The notes beneath the pieces were generated by a model. It was not told where the DNA came from, made no database searches, and saw only the letters and a program-made list of their open reading frames with translations. This document shows positions 6,783 to 64,000 of a DNA stretch of 64,000 bases, in pieces. Position 1 is the stretch's first letter. Every line of letters begins with the position of its first letter. Both the position numbers and the translations under genes were made by a program. Source of the stretch: Arthrobacter yangruifuii (GTDB lineage Bacteria; Actinomycetota; Actinomycetes; Actinomycetales; Micrococcaceae); the NCBI RefSeq assembly GCF_009192775.1, contig NZ_VTFX01000004.1, positions 372,001 through 436,000 of the forward strand. Direction: 5' to 3'.

Positions 6783-7714
6783 TCGAAGACCACGTCCTCA
6801 CGGTTGGCGAGGCCGCGGGCCCAGTCGGCCCCCGGCATCATTTTCTTGCCTGCGGGCTGGACACGCAGCAGTTCGAGTCCGTGTGAGCCGGTACCCACGA
6901 CGGCGGCGGCATCAGCGCCGCCGGTAAAGCGCACCTGGCCGGGAGCCAGGTCGGTGACATCGGAGCGCAGCTTGGCCGCCCCGATCTTGAACCGGGCGCC
7001 GTCCCAGGTAGTCCAGGCGCCGGGTTCGGGGGTGACGCCGTTGATCCGGCGGCGGATGGCGAGGGCGGGCTGCTGCCAGTCCACGCGGGCGTCGTCAATG
7101 CTGAGCTTTGGCGCCAGGGTGATGTCACCCTGCTGTGGTACCGGCACGGCCGCACCGGCGTCGACAGCGCCCAAGGTCTGGGCCAGCAGCACGGCACCGG
7201 AATGCGAGAGGCGTTCCAGCAGATCGCCGCTGGTGTCCTCGGGCCGCACCGTTTCGGTGAGCGTGCCGAAGACCGGGCCGGTGTCCAGCCCGGTTTCGAG
7301 CAGGAACGTGGAGGCACCGGTGATGTCGTCTCCGGCCATCACGGCGTGCTGCACGGGGGCGGCGCCGCGCCAGGCGGGCAGCAGGGAGAAGTGCAGGTTG
7401 ATCCAGCCCTGCTTCGGCACGGTGAGGGCACGGGCCGGGACCAGGGCGCCGTACGCCACGATGGCGGCGACGTCGGGATCCAGCGCGGCGATGGCGGCAA
7501 TGGCCTCATCATCCACCTTCGCTGCGCGGATCACCGGCAGGCCCAGCTCCTGGGCTCGGGCGGCCACCGGCGACGGCGTCAGGACCTTCTTGCGGCCCAG
7601 CGGCGCGTCCGGACGGGTAAGAACACCGACGACGTCGAATCCGGCGTCAATCAGTGCGTTCAGGGACGGCACGGCCACCGCGGGGGTGCCGGCGAACAGG
7701 ACTCGCAGTGTCAC
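6779..7714 (-). CDS. fmt: methionyl-tRNA formyltransferase
   Basis: Formylates Met-tRNA(fMet) using 10-formyltetrahydrofolate, for translation initiation. The formyl-transfer domain begins LRVLFAGTPAVAVPSL, and the catalytic HxSLLPxxRG element is present as HFSLLPAWRG, followed by a TGASTFLLETGLDTGPV segment. The C-terminal OB-like domain follows from about residue 205. The start is GTG at 7714. It lies 6 bp downstream of def, the usual functional pair: Fmt adds the formyl group and Def removes it. Confidence 0.95.
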   Translation of the reverse strand: MTLRVLFAGTPAVAVPSLNALIDAGFDVVGVLTRPDAPLGRKKVLTPSPVAARAQELGLPVIRAAKVDDEAIAAIAALDPDVAAIVAYGALVPARALTVPKQGWINLHFSLLPAWRGAAPVQHAVMAGDDITGASTFLLETGLDTGPVFGTLTETVRPEDTSGDLLERLSHSGAVLLAQTLGAVDAGAAVPVPQQGDITLAPKLSIDDARVDWQQPALAIRRRINGVTPEPGAWTTWDGARFKIGAAKLRSDVTDLAPGQVRFTGGADAAAVVGTGSHGLELLRVQPAGKKMMPGADWARGLANREDVVFE

Positions 7715-7720
7715 GCTTGC

Positions 7721-8293
7721 CTAAGCTCCGGTCCGGGTGCCGAAGGTGCCGAAGCTGGAGCCGACGTTCTGGGCGCGCTGGGCTACGGTGCGGTCCGCGA
7801 TGGCGTCGTATTCCCGCTGGCGGATGGCGCGCAGGGCCTCCTTGCGGTGTTCGCCTTCGAGCCGGTCGATGTAGAGCGACCCGTTCAGGTGGTCGGTCTC
7901 GTGCTGGAAGCAGCGGGCGAGCATTCCTTCGCCCTCGATGCTGATCGGGTTGCCGTGCAGGTCGACGCCGGTGACCCGGGCCCAGCGGAAACGCGGGGCC
8001 GGGTAGCCGAGGCCGGGGATGGACAGGCAGCCCTCCAAGTGGTCCGGCTGGAGGTCTTCGCTGAGTTCCAGGACCGGGTTCACCACGTGGCCGGCCTGGC
8101 CGTCCACGCGGTAGGTGAAGACGCGCAGGCTGACGCCGACCTGCGGAGCAGCCAGACCGGCGCCCTCAACGTCCTCCATGGTTTCCTCCATGTCCGCTAC
8201 CAGCTTCGCCAGTTCGGGGCCGAAGTCGGTCACGTCTTCGGCGCGGGTCCGCAGGACCGGGTCGCCGAGCGTGCGGATAGTCAGGATGGCCAT
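7721..8293 (-). CDS. def: peptide deformylase
   Basis: Removes the N-formyl group from nascent proteins. All three metalloprotease motifs are present: GAGLAAPQVG, EGCLSIPG (metal-ligand Cys) and QHETDHLNG (HExxH-type metal site). Length 190 is normal. It is the promoter-proximal gene of the minus-strand operon def-fmt-rsmB-rpe. The ATG at 8291-8293 is preceded by GGAAC, a weak ribosome-binding site. Confidence 0.96.
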   Translation of the reverse strand: MAILTIRTLGDPVLRTRAEDVTDFGPELAKLVADMEETMEDVEGAGLAAPQVGVSLRVFTYRVDGQAGHVVNPVLELSEDLQPDHLEGCLSIPGLGYPAPRFRWARVTGVDLHGNPISIEGEGMLARCFQHETDHLNGSLYIDRLEGEHRKEALRAIRQREYDAIADRTVAQRAQNVGSSFGTFGTRTGA

Positions 8294-8367
8294 TGGAGTT
8301 TCGTTCCTTACTGTTGCTGCATGGGATCGGAATCCAGTCTAGTTGGCTCCGCCGCTGACCGGGACGA

Positions 8368-9312
8368 TTAGGGCCGGGGAGCACCTGCCGGCACCGAAGT
8401 CTGCGGATCGGCAGTCTCCGGGCCGGGGGCTTCCGGAGGCACAGCCTGCGGGGCAGGGGTTTCGTGTGCACCCACAGGAGGCGGCGGCACGGGCAGCAGG
8501 GCCCGGCCGGCGGCCACTGCATCAATGCTGGTCTGCCAGACACGGCGCAGCGCGCAGAACTTGAACCAGTGCTGGGGAAGCACATCCGGGTTGGCCCGCA
8601 TGGGCCGCACCTCGGTCTGCCCCACTGCGACGCCCAGCAGAAGCGGGCTCTGACCGTAGGCCCACGGCTCCCAGATGCCGGCACCGGCGTCCACCAGCGA
8701 TTCCTGCGCCTTCATCCCGGCGACCAGCTGCATCACCACCTTGTCATCCAGCTGCTTGACCTGGCCGTCGCGGTCAGTGTTCTTGGTCTTGTAATCGATC
8801 AGGCACAGCCGGCCGCCAATCCGTGCCACCAGGTCCAGGGTGCCGGCGTAGCCCAGCTCCGCGTTCCACACGGTGATTTCCGGGGCGAGGGGCTGTACGT
8901 CGTAGAGCTTCCACCATTCGTCGAACCGGTCAGCGAACTGGTGCTCGCCGCGGGCGGAAAGCTCTTCACGTGCGCGTTCGACCTCGTGCGGCCGGTCCAG
9001 GGCACGCAGTGCCACCTGCTCGCAGTAGTAGTGGACGCGGGTACCGCGCTGGGCCGCGGCGTCCCGGTAGCGTTCGGAGGCCGAGGAGGCTTCCTTCACC
9101 ACGGAACGCAGCTGTGAGGGGCTGCCGAGTGCCGCAGTCAGTTTGGGATCCTTGACCACGGCGGAGGCCGCCATGTAGCTGTGCCATCCGTCGAGGGACG
9201 TGGACCCCTGGGAGATCACCGTAGTGATGGACGGGACCGTGGGCGGCTCGGAAAGCGACCGCGAGTACATCCGGCCGTATTCGGTGGCGTGTGCCAATGC
9301 TGGTTCAGTCAT
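8368..9312 (-). CDS. PD-(D/E)XK (RecB-like) nuclease-fold protein
   Basis: A 314-residue protein whose middle carries the nuclease core: a conserved His-rich helix (RGTRVHYYCEQVAL, ~88-101), then Glu...GTLDLVARIGG and LIDYKTKN (~168-190), which match the D...(D/E)xK pattern with Gln helix (KQLDDKVVMQLVAG). Such RecB-type domains cut DNA in repair enzymes or act in mobile elements, but the role of this stand-alone actinobacterial form is unknown to me. The last ~45 residues are Pro/Ala-rich and probably disordered. It stands alone upstream of def. Confidence 0.75.
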   Translation of the reverse strand: MTEPALAHATEYGRMYSRSLSEPPTVPSITTVISQGSTSLDGWHSYMAASAVVKDPKLTAALGSPSQLRSVVKEASSASERYRDAAAQRGTRVHYYCEQVALRALDRPHEVERAREELSARGEHQFADRFDEWWKLYDVQPLAPEITVWNAELGYAGTLDLVARIGGRLCLIDYKTKNTDRDGQVKQLDDKVVMQLVAGMKAQESLVDAGAGIWEPWAYGQSPLLLGVAVGQTEVRPMRANPDVLPQHWFKFCALRRVWQTSIDAVAAGRALLPVPPPPVGAHETPAPQAVPPEAPGPETADPQTSVPAGAPRP

Positions 9313-9369
9313 GTTTCCAGTCTGCCACCCGGCGGTGACAGTCTGCTGCTCGGCACCGTGCGCCCGCTG

Positions 9370-10035
9370 CTAGCGGCTTCCACCCCCGTGAACCCTGCGG
9401 ATAATAGCGTCGATGCGGTCGCGGATCTCGCCCGGGGTCCTGACCAATCCATAGGAGGGGCCGTCTTCCGTGGTCCCCCAGGGGACGAGGACGTCAAAGT
9501 CGAGATCGCGGACCAGTGCAAGGCTGTCCAGGTAGTCACCGCGAAGGTGCTCCTCAAGGACCACGGCTTTCCATTCCCCGTGGTCAATCCAAATGAAATC
9601 TCCGGTGAAGAGAAACCGGCGGTCCCCGTTGTCCCAGAGGTAACTTGTGGTCCCCGCGGTGTGGCCCGGCGTCGGGATAACCTCCAGATCGCGGCCGATC
9701 ATCTGATGCCCCGTAAAGACTCCGGCCACCGGAAGCGAAGATTCCACCGCTGCCCGGTCCAGTTGGTGGACATATGTATCGACGTCGATCTCCGGTGGAC
9801 CGTACATGGCCTCATGCTCGTGGTTGATCAACAGCCCCGCGGCGCCGCCGAGCTCCCCAATTGCCTCCCCGGAACCGGTCACGCCCGGGGAGTTGTAGAT
9901 GATCAGGTTGCCTTCCTGACGTTCGAGGACGAAGGAGCGCAGGAGCACATCATGCTGGTACGGCAGACGCACCGCGGAGGTGGCAAGCAGGCCGTCTACC
10001 GGCGTTTCCAAAGGGCTGGACTGCGGATGGGACAC
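9370..10035 (-). CDS. metallo-beta-lactamase-fold protein, degenerate metal site
   Basis: A 221-residue protein with the fold's landmarks: a LLINHEHEA strand end where HxHxDH is expected, PTPGHTAGTTSYLW (third ligand His) and FLFTGDFIW (bridging Asp). The Asp-His half of the first motif is missing and no clear final His is seen, so it may bind one metal or have altered chemistry. I chose GTG at 10033-10035 because GGAG lies 7 bases upstream; a longer frame up to 10119 would run into a tRNA terminator. Substrate unknown. Confidence 0.7.
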   Translation of the reverse strand: MSHPQSSPLETPVDGLLATSAVRLPYQHDVLLRSFVLERQEGNLIIYNSPGVTGSGEAIGELGGAAGLLINHEHEAMYGPPEIDVDTYVHQLDRAAVESSLPVAGVFTGHQMIGRDLEVIPTPGHTAGTTSYLWDNGDRRFLFTGDFIWIDHGEWKAVVLEEHLRGDYLDSLALVRDLDFDVLVPWGTTEDGPSYGLVRTPGEIRDRIDAIIRRVHGGGSR

Positions 10036-10118
10036 GGTTTGCTCCGATCGCCGGAGGGCATAGCCAGGGATGCAGGCCTCCTGACTACACCTCACAGCGA
10101 ATAACCGCCAGAAGGACA

Positions 10119-10159
10119 CAAAAAAGGCCGCCGCTTTCGCAAGGAAAGCAACGGCCTTT
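10119..10159 (-). terminator. terminator of tRNA-Val(CAC)
   Basis: On the minus strand, AAAGGCCGTTGCTTTCC / GAAAGCGGCGGCCTTTTTTG forms a long hairpin ending in a T run directly after the tRNA gene. It also isolates the downstream metallo-beta-lactamase gene. Confidence 0.85.
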
Positions 10160-10164
10160 GAGGG

Positions 10165-10236
10165 TGGGCGATACTGGGTTCGAACCAGTGACCTCTTCGG
10201 TGTGAACGAAGCGCGCTACCACTGCGCCAATCGCCC
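10165..10236 (-). tRNA. tRNA-Val (anticodon CAC)
   Basis: 72-nt cloverleaf on the minus strand: acceptor GGGCGAT / ATCGCCC, anticodon stem CTTCG/CGAAG around loop TTCACAC (anticodon CAC), and T-arm GGTTCGAACCC. No encoded CCA. Body nearly identical to the two Val-GAC genes on the other strand. Confidence 0.95.
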
Positions 10237-10276
10237 CGACTTGCTGGTGCGCCCGGAAGCACTCCAACGAGTAAAG

Positions 10277-10305
10277 ATGCTAGCCCAGATCTGCCGCGAG
10301 TCCAA
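10277..10305 (-). promoter_or_regulatory. promoter of tRNA-Val(CAC)
   Basis: On the minus strand, -35 TTGGAC and -10 TAGCAT are separated by exactly 17 bases, about 40 bases upstream of the tRNA. Close to the housekeeping sigma consensus. Confidence 0.65.
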
Positions 10306-10328
10306 ACCAGCGCCGTTTCCGGGGCCGA

Positions 10329-10356
10329 TTGGACGAACCCGCAAACGTCCTATAGA
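10329..10356 (+). promoter_or_regulatory. promoter of the plus-strand tRNA cluster
   Basis: -35 TTGGAC, 16-base spacer, -10 TATAGA, about 80 bases upstream of the first tRNA-Gly. It forms a divergent pair with the Val-CAC promoter. Confidence 0.6.
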
Positions 10357-10438
10357 GTTTTTCTTCGTTGGAAAGCGGGGGTTCGCCGCGGAAAGCGCAA
10401 GCAATCCAGAGGCAAATAACCCACACCTTCTTCAACGT

Positions 10439-10512
10439 GCGGACGTAGCTCAGCTGGCTAGAGCACCACCTTGCCAAGGTGGATGTCGCGGGTTCGAATC
10501 CCGTCGTCCGCT
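10439..10512 (+). tRNA. tRNA-Gly (anticodon GCC), copy 1
   Basis: 74-nt cloverleaf: acceptor GCGGACG / CGTCCGC plus T, anticodon stem CCACC/GGTGG around TTGCCAA (anticodon GCC), T-arm GGGTTCGAATCCC. Identical to copies 2 and 3. CCA not encoded. Confidence 0.96.
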
Positions 10513-10578
10513 CGCAAGTCACTGTACAAGCTGCCCCGGTTTCCGGGTCGGTTCTCCAAAGCTTTATGCGGCGGTTAC

Positions 10579-10649
10579 GGTGGGGTGGCCGAGAGGCGAG
10601 GCAGCGGCCTGCAAAGCCGTATACGCGGGTTCGAATCCCGTCCCCACCT
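10579..10649 (+). tRNA. tRNA-Cys (anticodon GCA)
   Basis: 71-nt cloverleaf: acceptor GGTGGGG / CCCCACC plus T, anticodon loop CTGCAAA (GCA), T-arm GGGTTCGAATCCC. It is followed by an encoded CCA at 10650-10652, unlike its neighbours. Confidence 0.95.
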
Positions 10650-10679
10650 CCACAGTGGATTGTAATGACCCATTTATGG

Positions 10680-10751
10680 GCGCGATTGGCGCAGCGGTAG
10701 CGCGCTTCCCTGACACGGAAGAGGTCACTGGTTCGATCCCAGTATCGCGCA
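10680..10751 (+). tRNA. tRNA-Val (anticodon GAC), copy 1
   Basis: 72-nt cloverleaf: acceptor GCGCGAT / ATCGCGC plus A, anticodon stem CTTCC/GGAAG around CTGACAC (GAC), T-arm GGTTCGATCCC. Identical to the copy at 10908. Confidence 0.96.
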
Positions 10752-10779
10752 CGAACAGTACTGTTTCAGTGCTTTTCTT

Positions 10780-10853
10780 GCGGACGTAGCTCAGCTGGCT
10801 AGAGCACCACCTTGCCAAGGTGGATGTCGCGGGTTCGAATCCCGTCGTCCGCT
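10780..10853 (+). tRNA. tRNA-Gly (anticodon GCC), copy 2
   Basis: Base-for-base copy of the tRNA-Gly at 10439, 28 bases after tRNA-Val copy 1. Confidence 0.96.
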
Positions 10854-10907
10854 CTCCCTGCTGCCTAAGGTTTTCCAGGAGTTATCCTGAACGGGCCGGG
10901 CAGTCGG

Positions 10908-10979
10908 GCGCGATTGGCGCAGCGGTAGCGCGCTTCCCTGACACGGAAGAGGTCACTGGTTCGATCCCAGTATCGCGCA
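10908..10979 (+). tRNA. tRNA-Val (anticodon GAC), copy 2
   Basis: Same sequence as the tRNA-Val at 10680; start of a second Val-Gly unit about 228 bp after the first. Confidence 0.96.
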
Positions 10980-11004
10980 CGGACAGTTTCGATTGTCTTC
11001 TTTT

Positions 11005-11078
11005 GCGGACGTAGCTCAGCTGGCTAGAGCACCACCTTGCCAAGGTGGATGTCGCGGGTTCGAATCCCGTCGTCCGCT
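11005..11078 (+). tRNA. tRNA-Gly (anticodon GCC), copy 3
   Basis: Identical to copies 1 and 2. Last tRNA of the cluster, followed 29 bases later by a strong terminator. Confidence 0.96.
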
Positions 11079-11107
11079 CTCCCCCGGCCCTAACAGCCGG
11101 CTAAGAA

Positions 11108-11139
11108 GGAACAGGTTTTCGCCTGTTCCTTTTTTGTTT
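11108..11139 (+). terminator. Rho-independent terminator of the tRNA cluster
   Basis: Perfect 8-bp stem GGAACAGG / CCTGTTCC with a TTTTCG loop, followed by six T. Confidence 0.93.
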
Positions 11140-11185
11140 AAGCGTTTCCTCCACCAGGGCGACACCCGGGGCGCCATATGTAAGC

Positions 11186-11214
11186 TTGCTTATTAGTTGT
11201 CCTACGCATAAAGT
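11186..11214 (+). promoter_or_regulatory. promoter candidate for the small membrane protein
   Basis: TTGCTT, 17 bases, TAAAGT, about 93 bases upstream of the ATG at 11308. Local sequence is unusually AT-rich for this genome. Confidence 0.5.
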
Positions 11215-11307
11215 CTCTGCAGTAGAGAAAATGTCGACATGGTTTCAGTAGCGGGATCAAAGTTGCATGGCCGCCAGGCCGCTCACACCACTACTTAGGA
11301 GACCCAC

Positions 11308-11592
11308 ATGGCGAATACGCAGACTCACAACGATCACAACACCACCACCGTTCGCAACGCCAACGACATCAAGGTATCCACGCGGACCCTCGAATTCGCC
11401 GTATACGTCCTGGCGGTTATCGCCACGATCATCACGGCTGCGGTTGTCGGCGACAACGCCAGCGAAAACGGCCTTGACGCGTTCAACGCCGCGCAGGCAA
11501 TGGAATACATCACCTTCCTCACGGTTGGCCTGATGGTTGCCCGTGGCCTAGCCAAGTCCGGCCACCGCGGACACAGCAACAACAACGCGTAA
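11308..11592 (+). CDS. small two-helix membrane protein, unknown function
   Basis: A 94-residue protein with a polar Asn/Thr/His-rich N-terminus, two hydrophobic segments (about 29-48, FAVYVLAVIATIITAAVVG, and 66-81, EYITFLTVGLMVARGLA) and a His/Asn-rich C-terminus. Start is ATG with AGGAG seven bases upstream and a plausible promoter, so it is very likely expressed. The sequence between the helices is acidic (DNASENGLDAF). I do not recognise the family. It lies alone between the tRNA cluster and a GNAT gene. Confidence 0.7.
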   Translation: MANTQTHNDHNTTTVRNANDIKVSTRTLEFAVYVLAVIATIITAAVVGDNASENGLDAFNAAQAMEYITFLTVGLMVARGLAKSGHRGHSNNNA

Positions 11593-11646
11593 CCAGCGCT
11601 GACCGGCCCTGTGCCGGAAGTGTTTTAACTGCCTAGAGTGTCGTCC

Positions 11647-12624
11647 ATGGACATCCGCCCGCTGGACCTCTCTGATGACGCCGACATGGCCGCTGCGTAC
11701 CGCGTTGAGTGCGCAGCTAACCAATATGTCCGGACCGGATGGACCCCGCTCGGCCGGGAAGCACGCATTCTCGGGTGGCGCACACCCAACGGCTGGCAGA
11801 ATCACCTCGTCGGTGCCTGGGACGGGACGACACTGCTTGGCTTTGCTGCCGGGATGAATTCAGCAGACACCCCGGACACAGCGTGGATATTCGTCTGGGT
11901 TGATCCTGCCCACCAGAACACGGGAGTTGGGTCCGCCCTGGCCCGTGCAGCGGAAGATGCGAGTCCGGCGTCGACCGCACGGTTCGTGGCAAGCGCCTAC
12001 CGCTCCACCACAGCCGAAATCGCTGCGCTCACCCGGAAGTTCGCCTCCCCGCTGGGCTATGCCGCGGCGACCACCGAGACCGTCGTCGAACTTGACCTCC
12101 GCGATGCCCGGCTGACCGGCCCGACGGCGGCGCCGGGCTACGAGATCTCGACGTACGTCAACGGCGTCCCGGAACGGTTCCGGGAACAAGTGGGACAGAT
12201 CAAAGGCCTGGTGGACGCCGAGGCCCCCAACGGTGAGCTCGGCTGGGGCGAGACCCCGGTCTCCCCCGCTGAATACGCGGAGGAAATCGACTTGTGGGTG
12301 GCCCAGGGACACACGGTCATTGAATCCATTGCCCTGGACCTGAACGCAAATGTGGCGGCCTGGACCTGTCTGCTTGCCGCGGCCGACCCCGACCGCCCGG
12401 CGCAGATTGAAGGAACGCTTGTGGTTACCGGACACCGCGGCCACGGACTCGGGGCTGCCGTGAAGCTCGCGTCGCTGCACCGTGCTGTTGAGAATGGAAA
12501 TGTCTCCAGGGTCCGGACGAGCAGCGATGATCAGAATGCCTGGATGCGTTCCATCAACACCCGGCTTGGTTTCATGCCCGTCGAGACCGAGATCATCCTG
12601 CAGAAGAAAAACATCAGGACCTGA
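11647..12624 (+). CDS. tandem GNAT-domain acetyltransferase
   Basis: About 325 residues with two GNAT folds. The N-terminal domain has the acetyl-CoA motif region WIFVWVDPAHQNTGVGSALA (about 84-103); the C-terminal domain has GTLVVTGHRGHGLGAAVKLA (R/Q-x-x-G-x-G type). The two-domain plan resembles mycothiol synthase and related actinobacterial enzymes, but MshD itself is not implied. I prefer ATG at 11647; GTG at 11638 is an alternative. The 3' end overlaps the convergent gene at 12614 by 11 bp. Substrate unknown. Confidence 0.75.
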   Translation: MDIRPLDLSDDADMAAAYRVECAANQYVRTGWTPLGREARILGWRTPNGWQNHLVGAWDGTTLLGFAAGMNSADTPDTAWIFVWVDPAHQNTGVGSALARAAEDASPASTARFVASAYRSTTAEIAALTRKFASPLGYAAATTETVVELDLRDARLTGPTAAPGYEISTYVNGVPERFREQVGQIKGLVDAEAPNGELGWGETPVSPAEYAEEIDLWVAQGHTVIESIALDLNANVAAWTCLLAAADPDRPAQIEGTLVVTGHRGHGLGAAVKLASLHRAVENGNVSRVRTSSDDQNAWMRSINTRLGFMPVETEIILQKKNIRT

Positions 12625-13096
12625 GTGCCTCCGCCAGGTCCTCGGCCGCAGAGAGATCCGCCAGCACCACCTGGTAGCGGTGTCCACCGGCGTCGGAGAA
12701 TGTCACGGCACCGGCGCCGCCCAGGTTCAGCCTCGTCAGGGAACCGCGTGCATGCCGTGTGACCGGCCAGTTCACCAACCCGGTATTCAGGCCGTGATCT
12801 TTGGCCACCGTGATGTCCTGTATGTTTTGGCGCTGAATGGCGCGCTTCCACAGGGGTCCTCTCAGGGTGGCGGCTTGCTGGTTCACCGCGACCGTGATCC
12901 GCGCAAGGAAGCACCACCAGCCGGCGGCGAGCAGGAGTCCTGCGGCGGCTAAATACAGCGGCCAGACCGAATCGGCGGATGCCCCGGCGGCTAACGCGCC
13001 CCCAACGGCCGCCAGGAAGGCACCGCCTCCCCACCGAAGCCAACCGGGAGGGCGCTCTGTGAACCTGACGCCCCCAGCCAATCTCCGCGAATACAT
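12614..13096 (-). CDS. small membrane protein with PH-like C-terminus (DUF3093-like)
   Basis: About 160 residues: a short cytosolic start, two hydrophobic helices (about 20-39 and 43-65), then a soluble beta-rich part with NWPVTRHARGSLTRLNL and HRYQVVLADLSAAEDLAEAL, the layout of bacterial PH-like/DUF3093-type membrane proteins. Start ATG at 13094-13096 was chosen because AAGGGGG lies 5-6 bases upstream; the open frame extends further but without a ribosome-binding site. Function unknown. Confidence 0.65.
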   Translation of the reverse strand: MYSRRLAGGVRFTERPPGWLRWGGGAFLAAVGGALAAGASADSVWPLYLAAAGLLLAAGWWCFLARITVAVNQQAATLRGPLWKRAIQRQNIQDITVAKDHGLNTGLVNWPVTRHARGSLTRLNLGGAGAVTFSDAGGHRYQVVLADLSAAEDLAEALRS

Positions 13097-13263
13097 GGTG
13101 CCCCCTTCTGCGTTCTGCGTGGCCGGCTGCCGGCTGCCGGCTGTCGATATGCAAACGCTACCGTTCACTTGCCTCGCTGGCGACGTAGGCAGCGGCGTCC
13201 TAGTCTGTCACCGACTCCTGCAGCCGGGCTTGGCATTCGGGACTTCATTGAAAGGAACTACCC

Positions 13264-14121
13264 ATGAATGTTGCCATCTTCGGTGCCACCGGACAGCTCG
13301 GCGGCCTCACCATCGACTCCCTGATCGAACGCGGCACCGCCCCGGGGAACATCCTTGCCCTGGGCCGAAACCGGGACCGATTGGCCGAGCTTGCCGGCCG
13401 CGGCCTGCGTACGGCAAGGGTTGACCTCAACGACGCCGCCACCGCAGCCGGCGTACTGGACGGCGTCGAAAAGGTCCTGCTTATTTCCATGAGCGAACCG
13501 GGACGGCGTGTGCCGCAGCACGCTGCCGCCGTGGAAGCGGCGAAGAATGCCGGGGTCCGCCAGCTGGCCTACACATCGGTTCTTGACGCGCCGACGACGG
13601 TGCTCGCCCTCGCTCCGGAGCATCGGGCCACGGAGGAACTTATCACCGCCTCCGGCATACCGTCGACCTTTCTGCGCCACGGCTGGTACACGGAAAACCA
13701 CCGGCAGGAGTTCGACGCCGCACGCCGGACGGGCGTCATTGCCAACAGTGTGGGTTCAGGCCGCATTGCCAGCGCTCCGCGCCGGGACTATGCCGAGGCG
13801 GGCGCCGTCGTGCTGAGCACTCCGGGCCATGATGGCAAGGCCTATGAGCTGTCCGGGGACACGGCCTGGACCTACACGGAGTTCGCGGCTGCCGCGCAGG
13901 AGGTGCTTGGCATCCCCGTCCGCTACGAGGTCCTGACACCGGCGAAGGAACAGAAACAACTGATCGGCCTCGGACTCGATGAAGGGACCGCTGGATTCCT
14001 GGGCACGCTCAATGCCAACATGCGCGACGGCGCTCTGGCTCCAGCGCCGGGAGAGCTCTCCAAGCTGATCGGCAGGCCTACCGGGCCGCTGATCGACACG
14101 ATGCGTTCCTGGATCGGCTGA
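13264..14121 (+). CDS. NmrA/QorB-like NAD(P)-binding oxidoreductase
   Basis: A 285-residue atypical short-chain dehydrogenase. The dinucleotide-binding motif GATGQLGG lies at residues 7-14, followed by the family segments VRQLAYTSVLDA and FLRHGWYTENH. This matches the YtfG/QorB quinone-oxidoreductase branch, which reduces quinones with NAD(P)H. GAAAGGA sits seven bases before the ATG. It is followed by the QacA-type exporter operon but has its own spacing of 76 bp. The substrate is not predictable from sequence. Confidence 0.8.
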   Translation: MNVAIFGATGQLGGLTIDSLIERGTAPGNILALGRNRDRLAELAGRGLRTARVDLNDAATAAGVLDGVEKVLLISMSEPGRRVPQHAAAVEAAKNAGVRQLAYTSVLDAPTTVLALAPEHRATEELITASGIPSTFLRHGWYTENHRQEFDAARRTGVIANSVGSGRIASAPRRDYAEAGAVVLSTPGHDGKAYELSGDTAWTYTEFAAAAQEVLGIPVRYEVLTPAKEQKQLIGLGLDEGTAGFLGTLNANMRDGALAPAPGELSKLIGRPTGPLIDTMRSWIG

Positions 14122-19261: not shown

Positions 19262-20299
19262 TTAGGATTCCTCGCCGGTCTGGCCTTCACGGGCCAGGGC
19301 GGTCAGGCGGGAGACGGCACGGAAATACTTCTTCATGTAGCCGCCGCCCATCATTTCCTTCGTGAACAGCTGATCGAAGGGCACCCCGCTGGCCAGGATC
19401 GGCACGTCCTTGTCGTAGAGGCGGTCCGCCAGCACCACAAACCGCAGTGCCACGGACTGTTCGGTGATGGTCTGCACGTTGTGCCAGACGACGGCGTCCA
19501 CACCGTCAATGAGCTGCCGGTAGCGGCTCGGGTGAACGCTGGAGAGATGGGAGATCAGTGCGGAGAAGTCATCGGCCGCTACGGTCTTGCCGCTGAACTC
19601 GGTTTCCATCCGCTGTTCCAGCTCGGCGTCCTCCAACGGCGCCGGGGACTCCGGCAGGCCGCGGTGGCGGTAATCCTCGCCGTCAATGCGGACGACGTCG
19701 AACTGGTCCGCCAGGACCTGAATCTCACGCTGGAAATCGACGGCGGCAAAGCGGCCCTCACCCAGGGAACCCGGCAGGGTGTTGGACGTGGCAGCAAGCT
19801 TGACGCCGGCGTCGGCCAGTTCCCGCATCAGGCGGGACATGAGCACGGTGTCGCCCGGATCGTCGAGCTCGAACTCGTCAATACAGACGAGCTTGTACGC
19901 GCTCAGGGCGTCCACGGTCTTGCGGAACGTCATTGCGCCCACCAGGTTGGTGTACTCCACGAACGTACCGAAGGCCTTGGGACCTTCCACGGCGTGCCAC
20001 AGCGAGGCCAGCAGGTGGGTCTTGCCGACGCCGAAGCCGCCGTCCAGATAAAATCCGGCCTTGGCCTGGGGCTTTTTGCCGCCGAAGAACTTCCGCAGTC
20101 CGCTGGGCTCGGGCGTATCGACGCCGACGGCGAACCCGCGCATCGCTTCTACGGCCTGCGCCTGCGAGGGCTGTGCCGGATCGGGCCGGTAGGAATCAAA
20201 GGACACGCTGCCGAACCTCGGGGACGGATAGAACCCCTTCAGCAGCTCGTCTACCGATACCTGGGGAGTCCGCTCTGTCAGGTGCTCCAGTTGTGCCAC
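19262..20299 (-). CDS. zapE: ZapE/AFG1-family ATPase
   Basis: A 345-residue AAA-like ATPase. Walker A is GGFGVGKTHLL and Walker B is YKLVCIDEFEL; RYRQLIDGVDAV and SGVPFDQLF follow. ZapE acts at the division septum with FtsZ in proteobacteria; the actinobacterial role is inferred by homology only. I chose GTG at 20297-20299 because homologues start just before the PRFGSVSFDSYRPDPAQPSQ segment; the frame stays open to 20434. Confidence 0.88.
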   Translation of the reverse strand: MAQLEHLTERTPQVSVDELLKGFYPSPRFGSVSFDSYRPDPAQPSQAQAVEAMRGFAVGVDTPEPSGLRKFFGGKKPQAKAGFYLDGGFGVGKTHLLASLWHAVEGPKAFGTFVEYTNLVGAMTFRKTVDALSAYKLVCIDEFELDDPGDTVLMSRLMRELADAGVKLAATSNTLPGSLGEGRFAAVDFQREIQVLADQFDVVRIDGEDYRHRGLPESPAPLEDAELEQRMETEFSGKTVAADDFSALISHLSSVHPSRYRQLIDGVDAVVWHNVQTITEQSVALRFVVLADRLYDKDVPILASGVPFDQLFTKEMMGGGYMKKYFRAVSRLTALAREGQTGEES

Positions 20300-58302: not shown

Positions 58303-58341
58303 AAGAGCGCGGTTCCGGAAACAATCCGGAACCGCGCTCTT
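58303..58341 (+). terminator. Rho-independent-type terminator after threonine aldolase
   Basis: Perfect 17-bp stem (AAGAGCGCGGTTCCGGA and its complement) with an AACAA loop, 25 bp after the stop, followed by TTCGTTTG. Isolates the operon from the chaperone-like system. Confidence 0.9.
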
Positions 58342-58572: not shown

Positions 58573-59337
58573 GTGAACGATCTTTCCTCCGGCCAGGCAA
58601 CCGGTTCCGCAGTTGAGGCAGAAAATCCGGAAGCCGAAATACCCGCGGACCAGGCGGTAATGACGGAAACAGAAGACAGTGCGGCGGAAACGGACGCCGC
58701 TCCAATTCCGGACGCGGCTGCAGGGCATGCCGGGAATGACGGAACCTCCCCGGCCGGGGAGATTCAGGATGAAGCCGCCGCAAATGCTGAGGCAGCCGGC
58801 GGCACAGGCCTCCCGGATGACGGGACGGTCCTGCTGAAACGCATTGATGCTGCCCTCGAGTCCTTCCACTCCAGGGCACAGCACTACGAAGAGACCAACC
58901 GGCTGCTGCATTCGCGCATTGAAAGCCTGCAGAGCGATCAGGTCCGGGTGCTCCTGAAGCCGGTCTTCGAACGGCTGGCCACCCTGCAGGCACAGGCGGC
59001 GGACGCGGCCGCCGACGCCCGGGACCGCGACCCCTCCAGCGCCGGGGATTTCGACTTCTTCGCCATCTCCATCGATGAGCTGCTGGCACTCTATGACGTC
59101 GAACCGGTCGGCGCTGCACCCGGAATCGCTTTTGACTCCAGGCTTCACCACGGCGCACGGATTGTTCCCACGGCCGACCCTGAACTGGATGGACGGATAC
59201 AACGCGTCCAGCGCCAGGGCTACAAATATGCCGGTGCCGACCGGGTAATGCTCCCTGCCCGGGTCAGCGTATACCGCCACACCGCACCGGATCCGGCCCC
59301 GGAAGCTGTGCCGGATTCCGAACAAACCATTAGCTGA
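58573..59337 (+). CDS. divergent GrpE-like nucleotide exchange factor
   Basis: 254 residues. The first ~80 are acidic low-complexity (Ala/Glu/Asp), then helices (LLKRIDAALESFHSRAQHYE; SLQSDQVRVLLKPVFERL) and a clear GrpE beta-wing: FDFFAISIDELLALYDVEPV, then FDSRLHHGARIV and GRIQRVQRQGYKYAGADRVM. The pattern FDxxLH...G..QxGY....R.L.PARV matches GrpE. Chosen start GTG at 58573 with GAGGAG eight bases upstream; an upstream frame is open but lacks signals. It probably serves the Hsp70 encoded 56 bp downstream rather than the housekeeping DnaK. Confidence 0.75.
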   Translation: MNDLSSGQATGSAVEAENPEAEIPADQAVMTETEDSAAETDAAPIPDAAAGHAGNDGTSPAGEIQDEAAANAEAAGGTGLPDDGTVLLKRIDAALESFHSRAQHYEETNRLLHSRIESLQSDQVRVLLKPVFERLATLQAQAADAAADARDRDPSSAGDFDFFAISIDELLALYDVEPVGAAPGIAFDSRLHHGARIVPTADPELDGRIQRVQRQGYKYAGADRVMLPARVSVYRHTAPDPAPEAVPDSEQTIS

Positions 59338-59393
59338 CTCCCGCGGATTCCCGCAGTCAAAGCACATCTCGGAGCAAAGGACCTTTGATTTAC

Positions 59394-60989
59394 ATGAATG
59401 ACAGCGTTTACGGCATCGACCTTGGCACCACCTACTCGGCCATCGCACGAATCAGCTCCCTGGGGGCTGCCGAGATCATTCCCAATTTCGAAGGCGAGCA
59501 GACAACTCCCTCAGTTGTTTACTTCGAAAGCCCGTCAAGCGCCATTGTGGGCTCTGAAGCCAAACGCGTCGCGATAACGGACCCGGACAACGCCTGCCTG
59601 CTGATCAAACGGCATATGGGAACGGAATACCCGCAGCATTTCCAGGGTGAGACATACTCGCCCGAAGCAGTTTCGGCACTAATCCTCAAGGAACTGGTCA
59701 CCGCCGCCAATAAGGAATCGGGCGCCGAGGCAACCAAGGTGGTTATTACCGTTCCGGCGTATTTCGGCGTCCAGGAACGCGAAGCCACGCGGCAGGCCGG
59801 GGCCATTGCAGGCCTGGAGGTCATCGGCATCGTCACGGAACCGGTGGCTGCTGCGCTGTCCCTGGGAATCAGCGGCGGCAGGGCCGAAACGATTATGGTC
59901 TATGACCTCGGCGGCGGCACATTCGATACCACCGTGATGCGGGTCGACTCCGGACGCGTTGAAGTGGTGGCCGTTGACGGCAACCGGAAGCTGGGCGGTG
60001 CGGACTGGGATTCGGCGCTGGTGGACCTGATCGTCGAGAAGTTCGTGGCACAGGCCGAACTGGGCGATGACGATCCGCGTTACGACGAAGAGTTCATGCT
60101 GGACCTGCGCCTCGGAGCCGAAGAAACCAAGAAGTCCCTGACAAAACGGGAAACGGCGACCATACGCTGCGCCTACGACGGCAAGAAGGCCAACATCGAG
60201 GTGACCCGGGCCGAGTTTGAGGCCGCCACCGAGCACCTCGTGAACCAGACCATCGAAATCTCCGCACGCACCCTCGAAGCGGCGACGGAAAAGGAAGCGG
60301 GCCTGTCCATCGACCGGGTGCTGCTGGTGGGCGGATCTTCGCGCATGCCCATGATCTCCGCCGCGCTCACGAACCGCCTGGGCTGGGATCCTCAGCCGAC
60401 CGATTTTGACCTGGCCGTCGCCAAGGGAGCGGCAATCTACGGCCAGTCGGCAGTCGACGAGGTCCTCCTGTCCGAAGGAGAGGAAGCCATGCCCGGCGAC
60501 GCTGCGAATGCGGCACCCCGACCGTTCCTCGCCGGGGCGACTTCCCTCACCATCGAAAACGTACTGGCCCGCGGTGTGGGGGTGAAGTTTGCCCGCGATG
60601 TCACTGACGAGATCGGGTACATCTCGTTCTTCGCCAGCGCCAACGATTCCATCCCCAAGACCCCGGAGCCCATCGGTGCCGCCACGCTCTCCGAGGGACA
60701 GCGCTCGGTCCAGATTGCCATCTTCGAACAGGGCGGCGAGCGTGAATCAGAGCTCCCCGCGGACAACCGGGAACTGAAGACCGCCGTTCTGCCGCTTCCG
60801 GCGGGGCTGCCCAAGGGATCCCCCATTGACATCACGGTCAATATCACCGGCGAAGGCATCGTGAAAATGATCGTGACCGATGACGTCAGCAAGGAGCAGA
60901 TTGAGCTCGAGGCCATGGTCTCGGTGCTCACCCAGGAACAGGTCGATGAGGAGACCGTGAAGGTCACCGCATTGGCTCTTCGCTCCTAG
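59394..60989 (+). CDS. Hsp70-family chaperone without lid domain
   Basis: 531 residues. The ATPase domain is complete: phosphate 1 YGIDLGTTYS (~6-15), phosphate 2 VYDLGGGTFDTTVM (~168), adenosine site VLLVGGSSRMP (~308). The usual hydrophobic linker (DVLLLDVTPLSLG) is replaced by an acidic stretch, and the beta substrate domain is followed by no alpha-helical lid. The protein is thus shorter than DnaK (~610-620). A TTG at 59385 is an alternative start with a closer AAAGGA. It belongs to the accessory system 58573-64000. Confidence 0.85.
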   Translation: MNDSVYGIDLGTTYSAIARISSLGAAEIIPNFEGEQTTPSVVYFESPSSAIVGSEAKRVAITDPDNACLLIKRHMGTEYPQHFQGETYSPEAVSALILKELVTAANKESGAEATKVVITVPAYFGVQEREATRQAGAIAGLEVIGIVTEPVAAALSLGISGGRAETIMVYDLGGGTFDTTVMRVDSGRVEVVAVDGNRKLGGADWDSALVDLIVEKFVAQAELGDDDPRYDEEFMLDLRLGAEETKKSLTKRETATIRCAYDGKKANIEVTRAEFEAATEHLVNQTIEISARTLEAATEKEAGLSIDRVLLVGGSSRMPMISAALTNRLGWDPQPTDFDLAVAKGAAIYGQSAVDEVLLSEGEEAMPGDAANAAPRPFLAGATSLTIENVLARGVGVKFARDVTDEIGYISFFASANDSIPKTPEPIGAATLSEGQRSVQIAIFEQGGERESELPADNRELKTAVLPLPAGLPKGSPIDITVNITGEGIVKMIVTDDVSKEQIELEAMVSVLTQEQVDEETVKVTALALRS

Positions 60990-61005
60990 GGCTGCGCGCA
61001 CACCG

Positions 61006-63705
61006 ATGGCAGGTTTTGACGCAAAGAAATACCGTGACACGGTCCTGAAACCCATGTCCAAGGGGGAAGGGTACGAGCAACTCCGGGAAGTCCTGGCCGA
61101 GCTGCGCCAGGATGAGCGGAGCACGTCCTATGCCCGGCTGGACCTCAATGTCCTGTATGACATTCCCAGTCCGGTCAAGGCGGAAGAGCTCAAGGCGTGG
61201 AAGGCGCAGATTGTCCCCGCCCTCAACAAGAGCGCCCAGCTGCCTTCGGCCCCCCTCCTCAAGGCGCTGCTGGACCTGTTGGAAAAGCAGGGACATGACC
61301 TGACCGAGCCTTCCTTCTGGGGCCGCCTTCAGGACCAGCGGCAGAAGCAGATCCGGACCAAGCTCGAAGAAGGCCTGCGCCAGTTACGCGTCGAATACCC
61401 GCTTGGCTTCGTGGAGAGCACCGAGCTGCTGTCCCGGCTCTCCACCGTGGGAATCACGGGCGTGACGGACAAGAGCATTTTCCACGTTGCCCGCGAACAG
61501 GGCCTGCAGGTCTTCACCAAACTGCAGCTTGATGCCACGGGGGTCCCGGACAAACTCAAGAGCGTCTGGCGCGCCGCGGCCAGGCATCCCGAGTACCGAT
61601 CCGTTCTGGACCTGCTGCTCCTGCACCGCAGCGAGGACATCAGGGACGTGCAGTTTCTTGACCAGCTGACCGCCGGCGGCGGGCCGTTCACCCTTGCCGA
61701 CCTCGACGCCGCCAGGAGCCAGAGTGAACGCGGGCAGGACACCGATGCCCTGCAGGACGCCCAGAAGTTCCTCGGCGCGGCCAAGGACGTCCTCCACTCA
61801 CAGGCGGACCTGCAGCAGCTGGTCCTGGGTACGGTCATCGAGTGGGCGGGCGGACAGCTGGGCCGGGGAAAACCGAAGCTGGAGGTCCGTGAGGACCTGG
61901 TGCGCCGGGGCTTCCACCTCGATGACGCTTCACGCCTGGTCAGCACCCTCAGCACCGGTGCCCACGCGGCCCGCACCGGTCTGGGGACGGTCCGGGACAA
62001 ACTCAGTGAGGGGCTGCTGGCAGAGGCGAGCGCGGCCCTCACCGCCCTGGTCCCGGCCGAGGACGAGGAGAACGAATACGGTATCCTCTCCGCACGGGTC
62101 GCCGAACTCATCGAGAAGAAGAAGGCCCTGCTCCAGAGCTACCACCGGTCCATGGCAGCAGGTGATTTCCCCTCCGCATTGGCTGCCGTGACGGAGGCCA
62201 TGCGGATTGACCGGGCGGATGACAACCTGGCCGCCCTGCAGGATTCCATCCCGCCGGCCGCGCCCGCGTCCCTGGCGGCGCGGGTTGAAGGGACCAGTGT
62301 GCTGCTGCGCTGGCCGCAGGTCGAGTCGCTGGAGTACACGGTGGTCCGGGAAGAGGGCAGCGTCCCCGCCACCCCGCAGGACGGCACCGTCCTGGCCACA
62401 CGGATCCGTGCCGGAAGTTATTCCGACACGGCAGCCCCGGCGGGCAAAACCGTCAATTACAGCGTGTTCGCCAGCCGGGACGGGAAGGTGTTCTCCGGTC
62501 CCCGAACCGATTCGATCGCTGTCCTTCCTGCGCCCACCGGCCTCACCGCCTCATCGGATCCCACCAGTGCCCTCATCACCTGGTCACGGCCTGCGCAGGC
62601 TGCCGGTGTCGTGGTGACCCGCTTGGGTCCGGACGGCAGCCGGATCGAAACCGAGCTGGCGAGCGGTTCGTCCTTCCGCGCCGCAGGACTCCGGACGGGG
62701 GCCAGCTACCGTTTCTCGGTCAAGGCCTATTACCTGCTGCCGGACGGACGGAAGTTCTCCGAGGACGCCTCCCTCGTCGTCATTCCCCGGGGCGAGGCCA
62801 CGGCCGTGGCTGATCTGCGCCTCACCGGCCCGGACTCCGACGGGATCATCCGGGCCACCTGGAATAGCGCTGACGGCTTCGACGTCGAGCTGTGGAGGTT
62901 CCCCCTCCTCAACGACCTGCCCCCGCACCGCATGACGCTGCAGGAGGCCAAGGCCCGGGGCGGGCAGCCCATCCCCCGCCTGCCCGGCGGCGGAAAATCC
63001 GGCAGCGAGACACGCATGCTGTTCAAGGCCTTCGCAGGAATCAACGCGGTAGTCCCCCTCACCGTGGACGATGCCGGTTTCCTCGTTGGCAACAGTGTCC
63101 TTTCGGGATCCGCGCCGCAGCCTACAGCCGTCCTCGCCGAAGCCTTCGGTGATGACCTTCGGGTGTCGTGGGAATGGCCGCAGGGCGACTACATCATGGA
63201 AGTCGCCTGGGAGGTTGCCGGAGTTCCGCGGACGCGCCGGGTGACCAGGGCCAGATACCGGGCGGACGGCGGCGTGAAGATCGTCAACGGTGCCGCGGCG
63301 GACAAGCTCACCATCGCCACCGTGATCACCGCCGACGGCGAACGGCTGGCGTCGAACCCCCTTCCGGTCCCGCTGCAGGCCCGCCCCCGGCTGACCGTCC
63401 GCTATGAAGTACGCATCAAGCGGGGTTTCACCGGGAACGTGGCGTGCGTGGTCTCGGCCGAATCCAGCGCCGCGGGTTCCGCAGTTGAGGCGGCCCTGGT
63501 GCTCAAACGCGGGTCCATCATGCCCACCAGCAGCGCTGAGGGTGAGCTGATTGAGAACCTCACCCTCGATTTCACCGCGGGCACCAGCTCGCGGCACGAG
63601 CTTTCCCTCGGCAAGGTCAAGTCGCCTTTCTGGCTGTCGTTGTTCACGCAGGACAACGGCGAAACCACTCTCATTGCCCCGCCGACTTCCCAATTGAAAG
63701 GCTGA
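61006..63705 (+). CDS. large helical protein with fibronectin type III domains
   Basis: 899 residues. About 1-410 are helical with repeated Leu/Glu/Gln segments (KYRDTVLKPMSKGEGYEQLR, AALTALVPAEDEENEYGI) in the style of TPR-like scaffolds. Residues ~416-505 and ~508-595 are two Fn3-type beta domains (PASLAARVEGTSVLLRWPQV; APTGLTASSDPTSALITWSR); ~600-690 and ~705 to the end are further beta-rich, Fn3-like parts (VADLRLTGPDSDGIIRATWN). No signal peptide, so it is probably cytosolic. It lies 17 bp after the Hsp70 gene. Function unknown; a scaffold or client-binding role is plausible. Confidence 0.75.
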   Translation: MAGFDAKKYRDTVLKPMSKGEGYEQLREVLAELRQDERSTSYARLDLNVLYDIPSPVKAEELKAWKAQIVPALNKSAQLPSAPLLKALLDLLEKQGHDLTEPSFWGRLQDQRQKQIRTKLEEGLRQLRVEYPLGFVESTELLSRLSTVGITGVTDKSIFHVAREQGLQVFTKLQLDATGVPDKLKSVWRAAARHPEYRSVLDLLLLHRSEDIRDVQFLDQLTAGGGPFTLADLDAARSQSERGQDTDALQDAQKFLGAAKDVLHSQADLQQLVLGTVIEWAGGQLGRGKPKLEVREDLVRRGFHLDDASRLVSTLSTGAHAARTGLGTVRDKLSEGLLAEASAALTALVPAEDEENEYGILSARVAELIEKKKALLQSYHRSMAAGDFPSALAAVTEAMRIDRADDNLAALQDSIPPAAPASLAARVEGTSVLLRWPQVESLEYTVVREEGSVPATPQDGTVLATRIRAGSYSDTAAPAGKTVNYSVFASRDGKVFSGPRTDSIAVLPAPTGLTASSDPTSALITWSRPAQAAGVVVTRLGPDGSRIETELASGSSFRAAGLRTGASYRFSVKAYYLLPDGRKFSEDASLVVIPRGEATAVADLRLTGPDSDGIIRATWNSADGFDVELWRFPLLNDLPPHRMTLQEAKARGGQPIPRLPGGGKSGSETRMLFKAFAGINAVVPLTVDDAGFLVGNSVLSGSAPQPTAVLAEAFGDDLRVSWEWPQGDYIMEVAWEVAGVPRTRRVTRARYRADGGVKIVNGAAADKLTIATVITADGERLASNPLPVPLQARPRLTVRYEVRIKRGFTGNVACVVSAESSAAGSAVEAALVLKRGSIMPTSSAEGELIENLTLDFTAGTSSRHELSLGKVKSPFWLSLFTQDNGETTLIAPPTSQLKG

Positions 63706-63706
63706 C

Positions 63707-64000
63707 ATGCTCTCGCTGTTTTCTTCCGCCAAGGCAACCGCCTGCCCCTATTGCTACGCCGAACTCAACGTGGGCAAAGTGGCCTTCCGCTGCAGCGGGC
63801 GCGGAGCCCCGGGCAGGACTCCCTGCAAGCCGGTTCCCGATCGGAAACGCGAAGAGGTCTTCTCCGACGGCACCCCGGTGCTTCCGGCGATCTCCGAGCC
63901 CGGGCAGCCGGAGGGACAGCGAAAGGACCTGCTGGGGAAATCCACGGTCACCTGCGGCGACTGCGGAGGCGAGAGCGGGATCCGCATGTGCCCGTCCTGC
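63707..64000 (+). CDS. zinc-ribbon N-terminus of a larger protein (GTPase-type candidate), partial
   Basis: The visible 98 codons have several cysteine pairs: CPYC (13-16), then a single Cys, a Cys in a Pro-rich loop, CGDC and CPSC at the window edge, the layout of N-terminal zinc ribbons. Proteins of this layout beside Hsp70 and Fn3 genes in actinobacteria are, to my knowledge, often TRAFAC-type GTPases; the GTPase part would lie beyond 64000, so this is inference. GAAAGG precedes the ATG, 1 bp after the previous stop. Confidence 0.6.
   Translation, partial: MLSLFSSAKATACPYCYAELNVGKVAFRCSGRGAPGRTPCKPVPDRKREEVFSDGTPVLPAISEPGQPEGQRKDLLGKSTVTCGDCGGESGIRMCPSC

What the first reader, a model, noticed from the sequence alone, without database searches (positions are those of the whole stretch)
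58573..64000. Accessory GrpE-Hsp70-Fn3-zinc-ribbon system running off the window
Four consecutive plus-strand genes follow a strong terminator: a divergent GrpE, a lidless Hsp70, a large helical/Fn3 protein and a zinc-ribbon protein. Seen in sequence: the motifs and the tight spacing. Known: bacterial conflict systems combining Hsp70-like chaperones, Fn3 proteins and zinc-ribbon GTPases have been described by comparative genomics. Inference: this is such a system, perhaps defending against phage or competing cells, and not a heat-shock operon, since DnaJ and the usual dnaK-grpE-dnaJ-hspR order are absent.
Basis: partly seen in the sequence, partly recalled or inferred. Interest (0 to 1): 0.8.

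Follow-up and report, generated by a model that had tools for sequence, protein, structure and literature searches.

The report
Accessory Hsp70–GTPase conflict operon with nuclease
An Arthrobacter-type bacterium carries an accessory operon that pairs a lidless Hsp70 and its exchange factor with two switch GTPases and ends in a predicted nuclease; it belongs to a class of bacterial conflict systems known from computer prediction, and what it really does is untested.

Summary
The zinc-ribbon gene starting at 63707 is a DO-GTPase (Pfam DO-GTPase2, 1e-8), followed by GAP1 (GAP1-N2 1e-24, GAP1-M 7e-12), a membrane DO-GTPase (4e-13), a 73-aa one-TM protein and a NERD nuclease (1e-5). This is the HSP70/GrpE theme of the GAP1-N2 systems predicted by Kaur et al. 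2020 (PMC7159879), not a heat-shock operon: dnaK, grpE and dnaJ lie elsewhere in the genome. It is accessory: 2 of 29 genus genomes have it, at one site; 24 of 29 have a short empty site, including the sister of the other carrier. The core order recurs in other families. After the core, 6 of 9 near-clade loci have a second Hsp70, with vWA, papain-fold deamidase-type or unassigned genes; the two Arthrobacter loci have NERD; two distant loci have a CHAT protease; 8 of 12 informative distant loci have no operon gene there. Best reading: a chaperone- and GTPase-gated, membrane-associated conflict system with NERD as effector. Identity is near certain; function is inferred. New member of a known kind.

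The parts
58303..58341 (+). Terminator-like hairpin between the upstream threonine aldolase-like gene and the operon
   Evidence: 17-pair stem, 11 G-C pairs, loop 5
58573..59337 (+). Divergent GrpE-like nucleotide exchange factor, 254 aa, GTG start with AGGAG upstream
   Evidence: Pfam GrpE 1.7e-9, 38 bits; sequence
59394..60989 (+). Lidless Hsp70, 531 aa
   Evidence: Pfam HSP70 4.9e-90; no helical lid in alignment with the genome's DnaK or with 2v7y
61006..63705 (+). 899-aa protein: N-terminal helical, partly TPR-like region and C-terminal beta/Fn3 region
   Evidence: fn3 8e-6; mainly helical AlphaFold2 model of residues 1-437, mean pLDDT 83; TPR_19 in 3 of 9 alignment members, not the window's own, best 0.00049
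63707..64000 (+). Start of the zinc-ribbon DO-GTPase, 402 aa in all; runs off the window. The rest of the operon lies beyond the window on L002 (window position = L002 + 55999): this gene 7708-8916; GAP1 8926-10956; membrane zinc-ribbon DO-GTPase 10959-12641; 73-aa one-TM protein 12638-12859; NERD nuclease 12850-13731; 59-aa two-TM protein 13824-14003; all + strand
   Evidence: DO-GTPase2 1e-8, GAP1-N2 1e-24, GAP1-M 6.6e-12, second DO-GTPase2 4.3e-13; NERD 1.1e-5, 26.3 bits against 22.1; motifs and hydrophobic stretches; NERD residues D162, D164, D177, K179 kept in both carriers; two-TM protein has a relative in L056, 36% over 58 aa

Best explanation
This is an accessory GAP1-N2 / DO-GTPase conflict system of the HSP70-GrpE theme. 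SHOWN: gene content and order; intact GTPase motifs in both GTPases; a lidless Hsp70 with its own GrpE-like protein in a genome that keeps a dnaK-grpE-dnaJ set elsewhere; insertion at a site that is empty in most genus members; purifying selection; core order kept in other families while the genes after it change. INFERRED mechanism: the membrane DO-GTPase and the one-TM protein anchor the complex at the inner face of the membrane; the soluble zinc-ribbon DO-GTPase pairs with it through GAP1; the helical/Fn3 protein is sensor and scaffold; Hsp70, cycled by its own GrpE, assembles the complex or holds it inactive and sets a threshold. A trigger such as phage entry or envelope damage flips the GTPases and releases the NERD nuclease onto DNA, of the invader or of the host cell.
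For: Matches above Pfam cut-offs for GrpE, HSP70, fn3, DO-GTPase2 (twice), GAP1-N2, GAP1-M and NERD. Agreement with the published description: two zinc ribbons on one GTPase, TM helices on the other, HSP70 and GrpE, FNIII protein. P-loop, DxxGE and [ST]KxD motifs in both GTPases. Accessory: GAP1-N2 in 2 of 29 genus and 8 of 395 family genomes; the Fn3-protein profile in 4 of 396 order genomes; all counts include the own genome. Gap of only 76-385 bp at the site in 24 of 29 genus genomes; G027 carries the operon, its sister G028 does not. dN/dS 0.06-0.19 for eight operon genes against A. zhaoxinii; three flanking genes 0.03-0.08. Conflict-type genes after the core: NERD in the two Arthrobacter loci; second Hsp70 in 6 of 9 near-clade loci, with vWA in two and a papain-fold glutamine-deamidase-type gene in one; CHAT in two distant loci, a TerF-like vWA gene in one.
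Against: No functional data. No PADLOC match to the operon proteins beyond a weak one to Hsp70. No GAP1 relative in the phage or plasmid collections, so no direct sign of carriage by mobile elements. GC of the insert is only slightly lower than the window's (0.648 against 0.670). NERD sits in this slot in only two genomes, so its link rests on overlapping genes and conservation. In 8 of 12 informative distant loci the next coding-looking gene after the last core gene is on the other strand, so a downstream effector is not a constant part. The paper ties GAP1-N2 systems to organisms with a multicellular habit; Arthrobacter is not usually counted as one (recalled).
Confidence: 0.6

Rival explanations
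1. Accessory envelope or protein quality-control module: the GTPases, Hsp70/GrpE and Fn3 protein form a membrane-linked chaperone that handles misfolded or mislocalised proteins; no invader is involved and NERD is a side gene.
For: Hsp70 and GrpE are chaperone parts; purifying selection on the core genes; in 8 of 12 informative distant relatives the operon ends at the last core gene; a paper on PSP envelope stress cites a DO-GTPase family protein as predicted to act in membrane-related stresses (passage).
Against: Patchy presence and presence/absence between sister genomes; a separate dnaK-grpE-dnaJ set; downstream genes of conflict type in several relatives: CHAT, papain-fold deamidase type, vWA, NERD.
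Confidence: 0.25
2. Core conflict system as published, but NERD and the two-TM gene are unrelated passengers that landed behind it; the real effector is another part (GAP1 C-terminal region, Fn3 protein or membrane GTPase).
For: NERD in this slot in 2 genomes only; a relative sits on an Arthrobacter plasmid with no GTPase, GAP1 or Hsp70 gene listed within 8 kb (38.7% over 67% of the query); most informative distant loci have no gene in the slot.
Against: NERD start overlaps the stop of the one-TM gene, which overlaps the membrane GTPase stop; NERD dN/dS 0.17, like its operon mates; 82% identity between the carriers with the D-x-D...D-x-K residues kept.
Confidence: 0.3
3. A paralogous heat-shock operon, with the downstream genes unrelated.
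For: Contains GrpE-like and Hsp70 genes.
Against: Hsp70 lacks the lid, no DnaJ, and the Hsp70-Fn3-GTPase-GAP1 linkage recurs in other families.
Confidence: 0.03

Closest known systems
[quoted passage not shown]
   Same: HSP70 and GrpE; FNIII protein; DO-GTPase with N-terminal zinc ribbons; second DO-GTPase with TM segments; GAP1 with GAP1-N2 and GAP1-M
   Different: No second Hsp70 and no DnaJ domain found on the Fn3 protein; a NERD nuclease in the slot. NERD is not mentioned in the main text of the paper (0 occurrences); its source-data file was not seen.
GAP1-N2 tubulin-theme systems (same paper)
   Same: DO-GTPase and GAP1-N2 core
   Different: Tubulin genes with vWA proteins instead of HSP70/GrpE; in actinobacteria an HRDC-FNIII protein
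Canonical dnaK-grpE-dnaJ set of this genome
   Same: Hsp70 and GrpE proteins
   Different: DnaK with lid, DnaJ close by, on contig C1
bNACHT25 with host DnaJ (PMC12169576; abstract and outline seen)
   Same: A chaperone takes part in sensing a phage in a bacterial defence system
   Different: Uses the host's own DnaJ and a NACHT protein; no GTPase/GAP1 parts named in the abstract
SNIPE (PMC13190303; abstract and outline seen)
   Same: Membrane-located nuclease used against phage DNA; an analogy only
   Different: The nuclease itself is at the membrane; no chaperone or GTPase operon in the abstract

Membership tests
GAP1-N2 GTPase-centric system (Kaur 2020) | GAP1 with GAP1-N2 and GAP1-M domains | tested here: met
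   1e-24 and 6.6e-12, both above cut-off
GAP1-N2 GTPase-centric system (Kaur 2020) | TRAFAC DO-GTPase with conserved glutamate in Walker B | tested here: met
   DO-GTPase2 matches above cut-off; DTAGE and DAAGE motifs; that this glutamate is the one meant is my reading
GAP1-N2 GTPase-centric system (Kaur 2020) | GTPase with two N-terminal zinc ribbons; second GTPase with TM helices | tested here: met
   CxxC at 13, 83 and 95 in the first; hydrophobic stretches 5-23 and 138-182 plus CxxC at 209 and 268 in the second; the helix count of the paper (4 N- and 1 C-terminal) not confirmed
GAP1-N2 GTPase-centric system (Kaur 2020) | FNIII-repeat protein | tested here: met
   fn3 26.4 bits against 25, one stretch
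HSP70/GrpE theme of GAP1-N2 systems | Genes for HSP70 and GrpE | tested here: met
   4.9e-90 and 1.7e-9
HSP70/GrpE theme of GAP1-N2 systems | Second HSP70 gene without the peptide-binding domain (a subset only) | tested here: not met
   Only one Hsp70 in this operon; a second Hsp70 gene is in 6 of 9 near-clade loci
HSP70/GrpE theme of GAP1-N2 systems | FNIII protein typically fused to DnaJ or TPR | tested here: inconclusive
   No DnaJ match, hhalign with the genome's J domains 0.4%, no J-domain structure among 42 hits; TPR_19 in 3 of 9 alignment members, not the window's own; weak TPR-superhelix hits, best E 0.037
Conflict / defence system | Patchy, accessory distribution | tested here: met
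   2 of 29, 8 of 395, 4 of 396 genomes; empty site
Conflict / defence system | Protects against phage, plasmid or competitor | not testable with these tools
   Needs an experiment
Heat-shock (dnaK) operon | DnaK with lid, DnaJ linked | tested here: not met
   Lid absent; DnaJ elsewhere
NERD nuclease | NERD domain with PD-(D/E)xK-type residues | tested here: met
   26.3 bits against 22.1; D162, D164, D177, K179 kept in both carriers; reading of these as catalytic is recalled; activity untested

The most novel reading that the evidence does not exclude
A membrane-bound immune switch in which a dedicated lidless Hsp70 with its own GrpE, paired GTPases and a Fn3/helical scaffold form a constant control unit, followed by a slot into which different effectors are swapped between lineages: NERD nuclease here, second Hsp70 with vWA or other domains, papain-fold deamidase, or CHAT protease elsewhere. 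If so, Hsp70 would act as a gate of immunity and not as a folding machine.
Probability: 0.35. Interest if true: 0.72.

Novelty: new member of a known kind. Interest (0 to 1): 0.45.

Why it matters
GAP1/DO-GTPase systems are a predicted class. In the held library three papers hold any of four family terms; in the parts that I saw of two of them there is no experiment on such a system, and the third, on alignment methods, was seen only in the listing. A compact member in a culturable genus, with a nuclease as the likely effector and an empty-site sister genome as control, would make the class testable: one removable gene set, one candidate active site to assay, and the open question of what a lidless Hsp70 does in a conflict system.

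Tried and rejected
Heat-shock operon: rejected, see above. J domain hidden in the helical N-terminus: positions 50-104 of the profile align in register with J domains but with 0.4% probability; the invariant N74-K75 stands near where HPD would be; the 135-aa AlphaFold2 model (mean pLDDT 82) has no J-domain hit (best E 1.9). Not claimed. Helical part 1-437 against PDB: weak TPR-superhelix hits, none at E <= 0.001. Solved relatives of the NERD protein and of the first GTPase: only hits at E 0.13 or worse. PHROGs: no hit for 7 proteins. PADLOC: a weak PDC-M61B hit to the Hsp70 and weak BovA hits to the CHAT protein of L097. NCBIfam: GrpE and DnaK models below their cut-offs. Mobile carriage: no GAP1 hit in plasmids or phages. 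A wider census of the NERD subfamily failed. The automatic walk missed genes that other calls show (NERD in L002; the slot genes of L111), so counts of empty slots rest. Not examined: L049 (G003 insert) and L051; 7 of the 27 non-own matches were not fetched with flanks; L053-L055 share only the GTPase by BLAST and L057 gave no BLAST match, so these four are left out of the Hsp70-type counts.
Full report
OBSERVATION. The window is contig C4, 372001-436000, of a 3.54-Mb, nine-contig genome. A 17-pair terminator-like hairpin at 58303-58341 separates them from the threonine aldolase-like gene upstream (gene name recalled from the sequence). The Hsp70 stops after the beta part of its substrate-binding domain; the C-terminal lid region of the genome's own DnaK has no counterpart.

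BEYOND THE WINDOW. I fetched the next bases of the contig (L002, window position = L002 + 55999). The zinc-ribbon gene encodes a 402-aa DO-GTPase (DO-GTPase2 1e-8). Then come GAP1 of 676 aa (GAP1-N2 1e-24, GAP1-M 6.6e-12), a 560-aa membrane zinc-ribbon DO-GTPase (4.3e-13), a 73-aa one-TM protein (L002 12638-12859), a 293-aa NERD protein (L002 12850-13731; 1.1e-5) and, 92 bp on, a 59-aa two-TM protein. Up to NERD the genes are 1 to 56 bp apart or overlap. DUF3000 (6.7e-68) and an RNase D-like gene (name recalled; not scanned) follow. Both GTPases keep the P-loop, a DxxGE motif and an [ST]KxD motif.

WHAT IT IS. Kaur et al. 2020 (eLife 9:e52696; abstract, section 29 whole and passages read) predict GTPase-centric conflict systems. 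Their GAP1-N2 type has an FNIII protein, usually a GTPase with two zinc ribbons, and, if there are two GTPases, one with TM helices. About 14% of its neighbourhoods carry HSP70 and GrpE, a subset with a second HSP70 gene without the peptide-binding domain, and the FNIII protein is typically fused to DnaJ or TPR. Each core feature that I tested is met. The J domain is not found; TPR is weakly supported (TPR_19 in 3 of 9 alignment members, not the window's own, best 0.00049; weak TPR structure hits).

IT IS ACCESSORY. GAP1-N2 is in 2 of 29 genomes of the genus: this one and G027, whose contig length equals that of Arthrobacter zhaoxinii zg-Y108 (873359). All 29 have DUF3000. In 24 of 29 the gap from threonine aldolase to DUF3000 is 76-385 bp; G019 has 1291 bp and G002 and G003 more than 1.4 kb of other DNA (an FAD-type oxidoreductase-like gene in G002, a lipoprotein-like gene in G019, both named by eye; G003 not examined); the two carriers have the operon. 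A DNA tree of the DUF3000-RNase D stretch groups the own genome with G027 and G028 (96/97), and G027 with G028 (100/100); G028 has a 114-bp gap, like the other relatives printed. So the label needs two changes: two gains, a gain and a loss, or exchange by recombination. Elsewhere: GAP1-N2 in 8 of 395 family genomes, 7 over the cut-off; the Fn3-protein profile at E <= 1e-20 in 26 of 394 class genomes and 4 of 396 order genomes, and at 1e-80 in 3 of 35 genomes of the family of G626. All but the last include the own genome; samples overlap. DnaK, GrpE and DnaJ matches lie together on contig C1.

SELECTION. Between the own genome and A. zhaoxinii eight operon genes have dN/dS 0.06-0.19 (Hsp70 0.056, first GTPase 0.073, second GTPase 0.150, Fn3 0.159, GrpE 0.166, NERD 0.169, GAP1 0.180, one-TM 0.186); the 59-aa gene has 0.038 and three flanking genes 0.030-0.083. 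This is purifying selection throughout, and six of the eight are above the three flanks.

COMPARISON. I fetched 20 of the 27 non-own matches, six family loci and two order loci. Of the 20, 16 have an Hsp70 gene before the Fn3 gene and 12 a GrpE found by BLAST before that (L103 has a GrpE-like gene on the other strand); L093, L098, L102 and L104 show no Hsp70 by BLAST. The nearest set is nine loci: own, L011, L052, L056, L086, L087, L088, L110, L111. Seven of the nine have the membrane GTPase and all seven have the one-TM protein after it; the two without that GTPase (L056, L110) show none. Six of nine carry a second Hsp70 (in L087 and L111 cut by the end of the stretch); the two Arthrobacter loci have NERD instead; L110 shows neither. 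After the second Hsp70 come vWA genes (L052, L056) or genes without a good Pfam match (L086, L088) that share an N-terminal peptide with the vWA genes. L111 has a zinc-ribbon/TM gene, a papain-fold glutamine-deamidase-type gene (5.9e-17) and a HerA-like ATPase between the one-TM gene and the second Hsp70. Thirteen of the 16 Hsp70-bearing loci are more distant. One (L091) ends with its contig. Of the other 12, three go on with a same-strand conflict-type gene: CHAT in L097 (5.7e-54, after an 81-aa ORF) and L089 (1.3e-55, after a 213-aa gene), a TerF-like vWA gene 180 bp on in L090; L101 is unclear (a 227-aa ORF without Pfam match, then a phosphotriesterase-like gene); and in eight (L092, L094, L095, L096, L099, L100, L103, L105) the next coding-looking gene is on the other strand (judged by third-position GC). 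So variable conflict-type genes are real but not constant.

HOW IT MAY WORK. Shown steps are listed in the best explanation. Inferred: membrane anchoring by the second GTPase and the one-TM protein; GAP1 as coupler of the two GTPases; Fn3/helical protein as sensor and scaffold; Hsp70-GrpE as a nucleotide-driven gate; NERD as the nuclease that acts once released. Precedents for parts, not for the whole: host DnaJ needed for phage sensing by bNACHT25 (PMC12169576, abstract) and a membrane nuclease that cuts phage DNA on entry (PMC13190303, abstract). I saw no experiment on a DO-GTPase/GAP1 system in the listings; the library lacks most subscription journals and bioRxiv preprints.

NOVELTY. A new member of a published, predicted class. 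Apparently new details: NERD in the slot; the one-TM protein that follows the membrane GTPase in 7 of 7 near loci; the short N-terminal peptide shared by different slot proteins. The main text of the paper has no mention of NERD, nor of CHAT or deamidase; its source data were not available, so 'new' is provisional.

Noticed in passing
L052:18253-18879 and 19588-20000, L056:5748-6374, L086:5212-5925, L088:4781-5479: Genes after the second Hsp70 begin with a similar short peptide (about RKxFxSxGxTEYPxGPxLxRL) followed by different domains (vWA in two, no good Pfam match in two, the fifth cut off): a possible adaptor that docks swappable effectors. Seen in the translations and in BLAST matches; not seen by eye in the NERD protein.
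   Followed up: partly
L002:12638-12859; L011:12731-12952; L052:16454-16663; L086:7532-7741; L087:459-668; L088:7043-7336; L111:6443-6649: A small one-TM protein (68-97 aa with the longest starts) directly follows the membrane DO-GTPase in all seven near loci that have that GTPase, and was not found in the two that lack it.
   Followed up: partly
   Followed up: no
L097:13324-16479 and L089:2502-5657: 1051-aa CHAT-domain proteins shortly after the membrane DO-GTPase, linking caspase-like proteases to HSP70-theme systems.
   Followed up: no
L048:6293-7468 and L050:2295-2927: The same threonine aldolase-DUF3000 gap holds other extra genes in G002 (FAD-type oxidoreductase-like) and G019 (lipoprotein-like), so the site seems prone to insertions (gene names by eye).
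   Followed up: partly
L056:4754-5425 and L110:12512-13150: Similar Pro/Gly-rich N-termini in genes downstream of the two near-clade systems that lack the membrane GTPase, perhaps substitute membrane anchors (by eye; no Pfam match for the first).
   Followed up: no
window 10163-11079: Cluster of seven tRNA genes: three Gly, three Val, one Cys.
   Followed up: no
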